Shown: in pieces, positions 1 through 2,229 of the stretch | How positions within the stretch are numbered: position 1 is the stretch's first letter | Layout of the letters: each line of letters opens with the position of its first letter | Source of the DNA: Melanopsichium pennsylvanicum | Taxonomy: Eukaryota; Basidiomycota; Ustilaginomycetes; Ustilaginales | Reading direction: 5' to 3' | Length of the DNA: 64,000 nt | Assembly (NCBI GenBank): GCA_900208305.1 | Contig: OAPG01000014.1 | Coordinates: 310,001 to 374,000, forward strand | Translations under genes and position numbers: made by a program | The notes under the pieces: generated by a model | Database searches by the model: none | What the model was told of the DNA's origin: nothing | Seen by the model: only the letters and a program-made list of their open reading frames with translations

Positions 1-444
1 CTTATGGATGAAGTAATTAGTCCTTCTATGACAGTTAAAGTAGCAGGACACCAATGGTACTGGAGTGCAGAATATTCTGACTTCATTAATGAGGACGGAG
101 AAAGTATCGAATTCGACTCATATATGGTTCCAGAAACAGATCTGGAAGACGGACAGCTTCGACTACTAGAAGTAGATAACCGATTTGTAGTGCCGATCGA
201 TACACATATCCGGTTTATTGTTACAGGAGCAGATGTAATTCATGATTTTGCCGTTCCATCTCTAGGACTTAAAATTGATGCTGTGCCCGGACGACTAAAC
301 CAAACATCAGTTCTAATTGAGCGAGAAGGTGTATTCTACGGACAGTGTTCCGAAATCTGTGGAGTATATCATGGGTTCATGCCTGTAGCTATTGAGGCCG
401 TAACACCAGAGAAATACCTAGCTTGGATTGATAGCCAATCTTAA
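1..444 (+). CDS. cox2: Cytochrome c oxidase subunit 2, C-terminal part (mitochondrial), 5' end outside the window
   Basis: This is the copper-binding domain of subunit 2 of respiratory complex IV, which accepts electrons from cytochrome c at the mitochondrial inner membrane. The frame is open from base 1 and ends with TAA at 442-444. It shows the aromatic stretch GHQWYWSAEY, the CuA ligand region (a His in VIHDFAVPS, then YGQCSEICGVYHGFMP with two Cys, Glu, His and Met) and a normal C-terminus. About 147 residues are present against about 250 in the family, so the two N-terminal membrane helices lie to the left. The ATG at 4 is an internal Met, not a start. Codon use is AT-rich, as in mtDNA. 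A decayed second copy of the same region lies at 1876-2229. The identification is certain; whether this copy is expressed depends on whether the segment is real mtDNA or a nuclear copy. Confidence 0.93.
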   Translation, partial: LMDEVISPSMTVKVAGHQWYWSAEYSDFINEDGESIEFDSYMVPETDLEDGQLRLLEVDNRFVVPIDTHIRFIVTGADVIHDFAVPSLGLKIDAVPGRLNQTSVLIEREGVFYGQCSEICGVYHGFMPVAIEAVTPEKYLAWIDSQS

Positions 445-617
445 TATTATAACTTGCAATTTTTCCCCCTTACGTAATTCTATTTTACTATTGCCAATAA
501 GTATGGTAATTTTATAATAAAAAATAATAAGTATGGTAATTTTATAATAAAAATAAATAAGTAGAGTAATTTAGGGTGCTATAATAAACCTTTTTATGGG
601 GTAACATATTCAATTTT
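445..617. repeat. AT-rich spacer with a 30-bp tandem repeat
   Basis: Directly after cox2 the spacer holds two nearly identical 30-bp units starting around 496 and 526 (core GTATGGTAATTTTATAATAA) and a third, diverged partial unit (GTAGAGTAATTTA) near 561. No gene is visible. Short tandem repeats of this kind are common in fungal mitochondrial spacers. Confidence 0.7.
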
Positions 618-1651
618 CTATTTTTTAAGGTAGAGTGAGTGGAGGTTAACAGGTCGTGAAAGGGAAGAAGGAGGCTTATTAAAATAAATAGCTGCTTTAC
701 CTAGAGAATCAAAGTAAAGAATTTCATTGGTAAAAGTATTAGTTACTTTCACACTCTTGGATGTTGGCAGAGTAACGGGTAGTTTAAGAACGTCATCAAC
801 AATTGATTTAAGTTCAGTAAGAGTAAGTAGAGTATTAATATTTACATTAGATACAGGTGTATTAGTAATAAGCCTCCGGCGGTATCACGAATCCAACCAC
901 CTTTTTTAACAATACCTCGAGCCCAATAAATAGTTTTACTCATAAGTCGTGAAAAAGCTGCTGTAGAATGCATAATATTGATAAGTGTAAGAGTATCACC
1001 TTCTTTATAATAAATGTAAAGTTTACTCCAAATAATTGTACTTAATTTAGGATCATTAGAATCTACAATATTCGTTCCAGCTACAAACATTTTATTATAA
1101 GTAGGTTTATAATAAAAGAAAAGATATTGTTCAAGAATAGTAATAAAAAGTTCTTTTGTGATAGTAATAGTATCTAGTACTTCTTCTGAAATAATAAATA
1201 GAGTTATAATTCCTTTATTTCAAAAATCTTTAATAAAATAAGATTTTGAACGTTATAACTCCCATTTGCGTGTTCTCGTACCCGTTGTGCTAGTGATTTA
1301 CTTTGTCCGATATATGTATCCTTTGTTGGATCCTGCGAATGAAGTAGGTAACAACCTGGTACTTTAGTACCAGTTGAAGAGCTTGATCTTACTACACTAC
1401 GGAATAGTGAACTATTATCAGATCAGCACTACTACTAGATAGAGGCAGTGTAATACTATTTATAACAATACCTTCACAAATTGTAACCACTTTATCTGTA
1501 ACTACTCCTTCTTTAAGCCCTAGAGCATAACTAATATTCTTAGAAGTTGTCCTGTATTATTTGCAATTTCTTGCATTACAAAGAGACTTCGTTTGAATCG
1601 TTCATCTTGCTCTTTATTTGACTCTTTAAAGATTACGTTTGTGTATTTCAT
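618..1651 (-). pseudogene. Decayed GIY-YIG homing endonuclease (mitochondrial)
   Basis: Read on the minus strand from the ATG at 1651, pieces of one protein appear in more than one frame. The N-terminal piece starts MKYTNVIFKESNKEQDERFK. The GIY-YIG core follows (PGCYLLHSQDPTKDTYIGQS, then SLAQRVREH), then EQYLFFYYKPTYNKMFVAGT, a block ending GGWIRDTAGG, and finally a NUMOD-like tail (TNEILYFDSLGKAAIYF) with a stop at 618-620. Joining these pieces needs at least three frame changes, near 1530, 1200-1250 and 865, so it is not one working ORF even under mitochondrial code 4. GIY-YIG proteins cut DNA to spread their own element. The relic lies antisense between the intact and the decayed cox2 3' ends, which suggests it carried the intact one in. 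Family call is firm; the element model is inference. Confidence 0.75.
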
Positions 1652-1875
1652 TGGTTAGTATATTTTATTTCGGTAGGATGTTCTAGTTAATTATACTTAT
1701 TATCAGTATATTTCTGAATCATACAATAATTATATTCATTTATACATTAATATTCAACTATATTTTGTATAATATTTTTATACATTAAAAGTTAACATAT
1801 ATTATTATTTGCTTAAAAAGGCATAGTTTATTAAATAAGTATACCTTCTTATACGAATGTGTTAATATTACTAAC
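1652..1875. other. AT-rich mitochondrial spacer
   Basis: Almost pure A/T sequence between the endonuclease relic and the decayed cox2 copy. I see no tRNA, ORF or strong repeat in it. Confidence 0.6.
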
Positions 1876-2229
1876 TGGTCATACGAGTACTCAGATTTCA
1901 TTAATGAAGATGGAGAATCAATCGAGTTTGATTCCTACATGGTTCCTGAAACAGATCTAGAGGATGGACAACTACGACTACTAGATGTAGATAATCGAGT
2001 TGTAGTACCAATCGATACACACATTCGATTTATTGTTACGACCTTATCCATGATTTCCCGTTCCATCTCTAGGACTTAAAATCGATGCGGTCGACTAAAT
2101 CAAACATCTGTGCTTATCGAGCGTGAAGGAGTGTTCTACGGACAATGTTCAGAGATCTGTGGAGTATATCACGGATTCATGCCTGTAGCTATTGAGGCCG
2201 TAACACCAGAGAAATACGGATTGATAGCC
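1876..2229 (+). pseudogene. cox2: Decayed second copy of the cox2 3' region
   Basis: The segment repeats the intact cox2 region from the Trp at 1876 to near the C-terminus, with many synonymous third-base differences (for example DVDNRVVVPIDTHIRFIVT against EVDNRFVVPIDTHIRFIVT). It has a deletion after FIVT at about 2041 that removes the GADVI stretch and shifts the frame. There is a smaller deletion at about 2088 and a 7-base loss near 2218 that removes the AW before the terminal Asp. The last 60 bases or so are almost identical to the intact copy. Upstream of 1876 the match stops, so there is no 5' part. This looks like the original 3' end of cox2, displaced and then decayed, or a partial duplication. 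Confidence 0.85.

What the first reader, a model, noticed from the sequence alone, without database searches (positions are those of the whole stretch)
1..2229. cox2 3' end duplicated around an antisense GIY-YIG endonuclease relic
An intact cox2 3' part is followed by a dead antisense endonuclease and then by a decayed, diverged second copy of the same 3' part. In some fungal mtDNAs mobile endonuclease elements have brought a new 3' end for atp6 or other genes and displaced the old one. The layout here fits that mode, with the endonuclease in the opposite orientation.
Basis: partly seen in the sequence, partly recalled or inferred. Interest (0 to 1): 0.75.

Follow-up and report, generated by a model that had tools for sequence, protein, structure and literature searches.

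The report
Endonuclease-linked swap of cox2 gene end
The last half of a fungal mitochondrial respiratory gene has been replaced by a version that diverged in another lineage, with a dead mobile DNA-cutting gene and the discarded old end left behind; this is a known way in which fungal mitochondria swap gene pieces, here in a more layered form than usual.

Summary
An intact cox2 3' part (window 1-444) is followed by a broken antisense GIY-YIG endonuclease (618-1654) and a decayed second cox2 3' part (1876-2229). The layout recurs at 15 other places in 12 other contigs. The two 3' parts differ almost only at silent sites (43 of 48 differences at third codon positions; dS 0.86, dN/dS 0.03), so they diverged as working genes in separate lineages; simple tandem duplication is rejected. 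A mobile endonuclease bringing a new 3' end and displacing the old one is the best explanation.

(1) The displaced copy runs into a second, sense endonuclease relic, matching proteins in which cox2 is fused in frame to an endonuclease: probably two invasions. (2) atp6, nad1 and nad3 in the same mtDNA have second 3' ends. (3) A third cox2 3' fragment lies between nad2 and nad1. (4) The window copy sits in a 12.9-kb nuclear insertion of mtDNA inside a dispersed repeat.

The mode is published for another smut (five genes) and for cox2 in other fungi. New member of a known kind.

The parts
1..444 (+). cox2 codons 107-253 with stop; from about codon 127 (window 61) this is the newly acquired 3' end (copy 1)
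   Evidence: COX2 domain E 1e-59; full gene = L009:9683-10000 + window 1-444
618..1654 (-). dead GIY-YIG / NUMOD1 homing-endonuclease gene, antisense to cox2, at least four frame switches
   Evidence: five segments, successive frames different; 85% identity over 100% of the X-joined query to intact P0122; Pfam just under cut-off
1876..2229 (+). displaced, decayed cox2 3' end (copy 2, codons 127 to about 251)
   Evidence: tblastn E 7e-59; alignment and codon-position counts
2230..3110 (+). second GIY-YIG homing-endonuclease relic, sense, continuing from copy 2; similarity shown at 2303-2371, 2438-2563 and 2586-2636, the rest of the extent inferred
   Evidence: matches the C-terminal tails of cox2-fusion proteins P0002 (E 9e-9) and P0004 (E 2e-7)
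3112..3391 (-). partial copy of the nad2 start (20 codons, minus strand, 3171-3112) and of its upstream spacer
   Evidence: tblastn E 0.005; blastn 81% over 136 positions and 78% over 68
5710..6131 (-). distant second relic of the same endonuclease family as the antisense one
   Evidence: P0123 E 5e-5 and P0122 E 0.002; shared 31-nt stretch, 81% (D10)
1..7108 (+). right part of a 12.9-kb insertion of mtDNA in nuclear contig C14 (C14:304208-317108)
   Evidence: boundaries against mt contigs; empty site with a 5-bp gap at 18 dispersed repeat copies

Best explanation
In the mtDNA of this smut-like fungus the cox2 gene is a hybrid. A segment carrying a cox2 3' end that had evolved in another lineage entered at about codon 127, linked to a GIY-YIG homing endonuclease, after a break in the resident gene was repaired from a foreign template. 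The hybrid gene kept working, and the resident 3' end was left behind the insertion and decayed, as did the endonuclease. Shown: an intact reading frame, the relic, the displaced copy, and divergence of both 3' ends under selection. Inferred: that an endonuclease cut started it, that the antisense relic is that endonuclease, and that the donor was another species. Before this event cox2 was probably fused in frame to a different, sense-oriented GIY-YIG endonuclease, whose relic still follows the displaced copy; the replacement gave cox2 back a plain stop codon (inferred).
For: Of 48 substitutions between the two 3' ends 43 are at third positions; 41 codons differ silently and 4 in sense. With 48 random changes, 400 simulations gave at most 16 silent and at least 26 missense codons. 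dS 0.86, dN 0.026 over 112 codons. Endonuclease relic between the copies with an 85% identical intact relative. In the 3'-half tree of this cox2, copy 2 and 27 of the 120 listed homologues, copy 2 joins P0003 (support 80), and a split with support 71 sets copy 1 with P0002, P0004, P0008 and P0028 apart from copy 2, P0003 and the rest. Residue A in WSAEY, which copy 1 has, is found in 3 of 120 homologues; all 3 run on at least 25 residues past the cox2 end, against 1 of the other 117. Copy 2 runs into a relic that matches the tails of two of those three. Of 6 genes queried in about 31 kb of this mtDNA, 4 (cox2, atp6, nad1, nad3) have a second partial 3' end.
Against: The endonuclease faces the other way; in 2 of the 4 Glomus cases gene and endonuclease are in phase, which needs the same strand, and the three other genes here have sense endonuclease sequence. 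Protein-level grouping rests on about three sites; inside the group of five, copy 1 is placed nearer P0008 and P0028 than P0002 and P0004 (support 63), and in the 5' tree the place of this cox2 is unresolved. No DNA of named relatives was available. Higher GC at third positions in the 3' half (37 of 127 against 20 of 126, p 0.016) does not single out copy 1, since copy 2 is as high (0.289). The last 54 aligned bases of the two copies are identical, while all 48 differences lie in the 291 before; the simple model does not predict this, and later conversion between the copies has to be added. The sense relic goes with the WSAEY type in P0002 and P0004 but with the WSYEY type (copy 2) here.
Confidence: 0.78

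Rival explanations
1. The 3' end was exchanged through ordinary mtDNA recombination or through the sense endonuclease, and the antisense endonuclease dropped into the gap between the two copies later as an unrelated insertion.
For: The antisense orientation is unusual beside the other three genes; a distant member of the same family stands alone on the minus strand at 5710-6131; the genes that I identified to the right of the cox2 copies and the sense relic (tRNA-Gly, rps3, tRNA-Asn, tRNA-Pro, the large rRNA) are also on the minus strand.
Against: The relic fills the gap between new and displaced 3' ends, as the mode predicts; the other three genes with second 3' ends have endonuclease-like sequence in the same gap (weak for nad3).
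Confidence: 0.2
2. Simple tandem duplication of the cox2 3' half inside this lineage, one copy then decaying.
For: The last 54 aligned bases are identical.
Against: 43 of 48 differences at third positions, dN/dS 0.03; random decay would give mostly missense changes.
Confidence: 0.02
3. Copy 1 and the endonuclease lie in a group I intron with a duplicated exon, and copy 2 is the true last exon (the Tremella type of arrangement).
For: Such introns with host-gene duplications are described in Tremella fuciformis mtDNA (PMC7315562, passages).
Against: Copy 2 is frameshifted and cannot be an exon as it stands; copy 1 is complete to its stop; no intron family reached E 0.1 in Rfam over window 1-9000, only three tRNAs, while the same tool does find a group I intron in the large rRNA gene nearby (L020).
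Confidence: 0.02

Closest known systems
Mobile-ORF gene hybrids of atp6, atp9, cox2 and nad3 in Glomus sp. mtDNA (PMC3630166, passages read), compared there with Allomyces macrogynus atp6
   Same: Hybrid gene, endonuclease ORF downstream, native 3' end displaced behind it, cox2 among the genes; for atp6 the two ends are 63.5% identical in DNA and 91% in protein.
   Different: There mostly LAGLIDADG (GIY-YIG in atp9) and hybrids shown to be transcribed; here a dead antisense GIY-YIG and a second endonuclease layer behind the displaced end.
Partial 3' duplications with GIY-YIG remnants in Sporisorium scitamineum mtDNA (PMC4466345, passages and one discussion section read)
   Same: Smut fungus, GIY-YIG fragments between full-length gene and partial 3' copy, same interpretation by the authors.
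   Different: Genes listed there are atp9, cox1, nad1, nad5, nad6; here cox2, atp6, nad1, nad3. Orientation is not stated in the parts that I read.
Alternative 3' ends of atp6 and cox2 in Phlebia radiata mtDNA (PMC4019555, passages read)
   Same: cox2 and atp6 with second 3' ends and free-standing endonuclease domains after the stop.
mtDNA recombination near mobile elements in Saccharomyces hybrids (PMC8209160, start of abstract in search listings only); that a free-standing endonuclease ORF lies at the COX2 3' end there is recalled
   Same: mtDNA segments exchanged between species, with recombination sites next to mobile elements.
   Different: Hybrids of two yeasts; the part of the abstract that I saw does not say whether a displaced gene end remains.

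Membership tests
Mobile-endonuclease 3'-end replacement (Allomyces atp6 type) | Intact gene followed downstream by a second, partial 3' end of the same gene | tested here: met
Mobile-endonuclease 3'-end replacement (Allomyces atp6 type) | Homing-endonuclease gene between new and displaced 3' ends | tested here: met
   relic at 618-1654; dead, and antisense
Mobile-endonuclease 3'-end replacement (Allomyces atp6 type) | The two 3' ends diverged as working genes before meeting | tested here: met
   43 of 48 differences at third positions, dN/dS 0.03; the last 54 aligned bases are an exception, being identical
Mobile-endonuclease 3'-end replacement (Allomyces atp6 type) | Displaced end groups with the host lineage and inserted end with another | tested here: inconclusive
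   3'-half protein tree agrees (supports 71 and 80), 5' tree unresolved, relatives unnamed
Mobile-endonuclease 3'-end replacement (Allomyces atp6 type) | Endonuclease cuts the empty gene at the insertion site | not testable with these tools
   needs biochemistry with an intact relative such as P0122
Mobile-endonuclease 3'-end replacement (Allomyces atp6 type) | Hybrid transcript expressed, displaced end not | not testable with these tools
   no RNA data
GIY-YIG homing endonuclease (antisense relic) | GIY-YIG catalytic domain above the curated score | tested here: inconclusive
   22.5 bits against 22.6 for the piece; P0122 20.3, relative P0124 28.3
Group I intron with host-gene duplication (Tremella type) | Intron RNA core and an in-frame downstream exon | tested here: not met
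   no intron family in Rfam at E 0.1 in window 1-9000; copy 2 frameshifted

The most novel reading that the evidence does not exclude
cox2 is a site of serial replacement. First a sense GIY-YIG endonuclease fused in frame to the cox2 end, with a break near codon 232-235 that left a third 3' fragment now beside nad1; then a second element with an endonuclease in the opposite orientation replaced codons 127 onward and freed cox2 from the fusion. The orientation of the endonuclease would then not matter for carrying a gene end, and replacement could act as a cure for fused parasites.
Probability: 0.35. Interest if true: 0.5.

Novelty: new member of a known kind. Interest (0 to 1): 0.35.

Why it matters
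It adds a case in which essential mitochondrial genes are mosaics of lineages, put together next to selfish endonucleases, with probably more than one round of replacement readable at one gene. Trees built on whole cox2 or atp6 of smuts could mix histories. The nearly unchanged nuclear copy (four substitutions against the mt loci compared, in 12.9 kb) is a warning for mitochondrial markers.

Tried and rejected
Tandem duplication: rejected by the codon-position pattern. Intron with duplicated exon: rejected. Assembly artefact: rejected for the cox2 layout by 15 other places in 12 contigs. Assembly chimera for the nuclear insertion: made unlikely by the two flanks being exactly 5 bp apart at 18 of 39 left-flank places. 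For that count I dropped the window's own match and 2 partial matches on the left, and the own match and 4 short matches on the right; the searches had scored 40 of 126 and 40 of 208 candidates.

Led nowhere: viral contigs (no relative), phage records (none), plasmids (one distant record); bacterial genome contigs gave 18 loci, of which I looked at 3: two, L032 and L033, look like fungal mtDNA inside bacterial assemblies, too distant to place the two 3' ends. GC at third positions did not separate copy 1 from copy 2. A third cox2 copy directly behind the sense relic was looked for and not found there; a short one was found elsewhere in the mtDNA. One paper search asking for all six of homing endonuclease, mitochondrial, antisense, C-terminal, duplicated and GIY-YIG gave 0 papers; this does not show that an antisense case is unpublished, since the library lacks most subscription journals and other wordings exist (with the phrase opposite strand, listed 20 of 21 papers, of which I looked into two, PMC6506933 and PMC7315562).

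Full report
What the window is. The window is C14:310001-374000 of a 21.1-Mb genome in 61 contigs. Bases 1 to about 7000 are AT-rich and carry mitochondrial genes; the rest is about 50% GC. The mtDNA runs from C14:304208 to 317108. The closest homologue of cox2 whose listed name gives a fungal species is from Jaminaea angkorensis at 85% identity, and the order cox1, atp8, atp6, cox2 agrees with that of U. maydis (PMC13028006, section 8 read), so smut-like is an inference.

The observation. cox2 is 253 codons, L009:9683-10000 plus window 1-444. A second 3' part starts at codon 127 at window 1876 and ends near 2229. Between them, on the minus strand, five segments in successively different frames, joined with X, match an intact 339-aa protein, P0122, at 85% over 100% of the query. 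The other five hits of that search are at 28-36% identity. One piece reaches 22.5 bits for GIY-YIG against a cut-off of 22.6 and another 19.0 for NUMOD1 against 22.8. The whole of window 1-2260 occurs at 16 of 23 matching places, one of them the window, the other 15 in 12 other contigs; one of these, C27, carries mitochondrial genes in the stretches fetched.

Divergence test. Of 345 aligned bases 297 are identical; the 48 differences fall 4, 1 and 43 on codon positions one to three; 41 codons differ silently, 4 in sense. dS is 0.86, dN 0.026 over 112 codons. Random change of the same size gives mostly missense codons: in 400 trials at most 16 silent and at least 26 missense. Both copies were thus under selection for most of their separate history, and copy 2 lost function late. 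All 48 differences lie in the first 291 aligned bases, the last one at window 375; the last 54 aligned bases are identical. I read this as conversion between the copies or a shared source of the last 20 or so codons; it is not settled.

Lineage test. The protein search listed 120 of 7998 hits. In the 45 of 120 rows printed, the 5' part of cox2 (residues 10-126) is nearest P0003 (116 of 117 identical), copy 2 is nearest P0003 (112 of 113), and the intact 3' part is nearest P0004 (125 of 127) and P0002 (124 of 127; P0003 121). Trees were made with 27 of the 120. In the 3' tree copy 2 joins P0003 (80), and a split of support 71 sets copy 1 with P0002, P0004, P0008 and P0028 apart from copy 2 and the rest; within those five, copy 1 is nearer P0008 and P0028 (63). 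In the 5' tree P0002 and P0004 join (96) and this cox2 is unresolved beside P0003 (36). This is weak support. Residue A of WSAEY marks 3 of 120, all with C-terminal extensions of 25 residues or more, against 1 of 117 others. That test was made after seeing the data, and P0002 and P0004 are close relatives, so it counts for less than its p-value of 1e-5.

A second layer. Behind copy 2 the sense strand matches the tail of P0002 (23 residues, 74%, E 9e-9) and the tail of P0004 with part of its GIY-YIG domain (E 2e-7). In P0004 cox2 is fused in frame with a GIY-YIG domain; P0002 runs on for 69 residues with no Pfam domain there. So the displaced copy was probably the end of such a fusion. Copy 1 ends in a plain stop codon.

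Other genes. In about 31 kb of this mtDNA, 4 of 6 queried genes have a second partial 3' end: cox2, atp6 (65 residues, 72%), nad1 (34 residues, 91%) and nad3 (52 residues, 60%). atp6 has a 513-codon reading frame between its two ends with a sub-threshold GIY-YIG match (16.8 bits against 22.6); its displaced end is open to its stop and differs from the intact one by dS 0.50 and dN 0.20 over 64 codons, a far less silent pattern than in cox2. nad1 has a GIY-YIG-like relic between its ends (E 9e-8 against the cox1 intron endonuclease; Pfam sub-threshold). For nad3 the endonuclease match is weak (E 7e-4; no such Pfam match). These are all on the strand of their gene. cox1 (first and last parts) and nad2 gave no second 3' end; nad2 has a second start at window 3171-3112.

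A third cox2 end. L029:4030-4090 is 80% identical to window 391-450 and reads as residues 235-253 (E 3e-5). It stands between a nad2 upstream spacer, which is duplicated at window 3121-3391, and nad1. Its start is close to where the identical tract of copies 1 and 2 starts (codon 232). In L032, cox2 is followed directly by nad1. A rearrangement broken at cox2 codon 232-235 would fit; this is unproven.

Nuclear insertion. Against the mt loci that I had, the block C14:304208-317108 differs in every covering locus at four sites, window 2952 (17 of 17 loci), 3766 (15 of 15), 5788 (5 of 5) and 5937 (5 of 5); some of these loci overlap in the same contig. Length differences at two other places are seen in about half of the loci (8 of 16, 9 of 16); no such site lies in 1-2260. 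The two flanks are a dispersed repeat: 18 of 39 left-flank places have a right-flank match exactly 5 bp away. This is a recent nuclear copy of mtDNA inserted into a repeat. A table on nuclear mtDNA copies has a row for U. maydis with 58.575 and 92, which I take as kilobases and matches, the column heads not being in the passage (PMC2820518, passages), so such copies are not new for smuts.

Comparison with print. The mode is established: Glomus, including cox2 (PMC3630166, passages); S. scitamineum (PMC4466345, passages and one section); Phlebia cox2 and atp6 (PMC4019555, passages). In what I read of these I did not see an antisense endonuclease between the ends, or two endonuclease layers at one gene end; my searches do not settle whether such cases are in print.

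Verdict. Interest 0.35.

Noticed in passing
window 1-7108 with L009:4208-10000 (C14:304208-317108): A 12.9-kb, almost unchanged insertion of mtDNA into a dispersed nuclear repeat, in place of 5 bp of it; empty sites are present elsewhere in the genome.
   Followed up: yes
L009:4712-8566: atp6 has an intact gene, a 513-codon GIY-YIG-like reading frame, a tRNA-Arg on the other strand, and a second, still open atp6 3' end.
   Followed up: partly
L029 (C27:1-10000): nad1 and nad3 have second 3' ends downstream with GIY-YIG-like sequence between (weak for nad3); the nad3 frame has a long C-terminal extension.
   Followed up: partly
L029:4030-4090: A third cox2 3' fragment of about 19 codons between nad2 and nad1, far from cox2.
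   Followed up: partly
L029:3712-3977 and window 3121-3391: Direct repeat of the nad2 start and its upstream spacer, on either side of the nad1-cox1-atp6-cox2 block; could drive mtDNA rearrangement.
   Followed up: partly
C1:2069202-2069271: A 70-bp nuclear match (99%) to the end of intact cox2, about 500 bp from a copy of the repeat that holds the large insertion.
   Followed up: no
L032, L033: Fungal-looking mtDNA (cox2 with nad1, or with nad2 and nad3) in contigs filed as Blastococcus and Streptomyces: probable contamination.
   Followed up: partly
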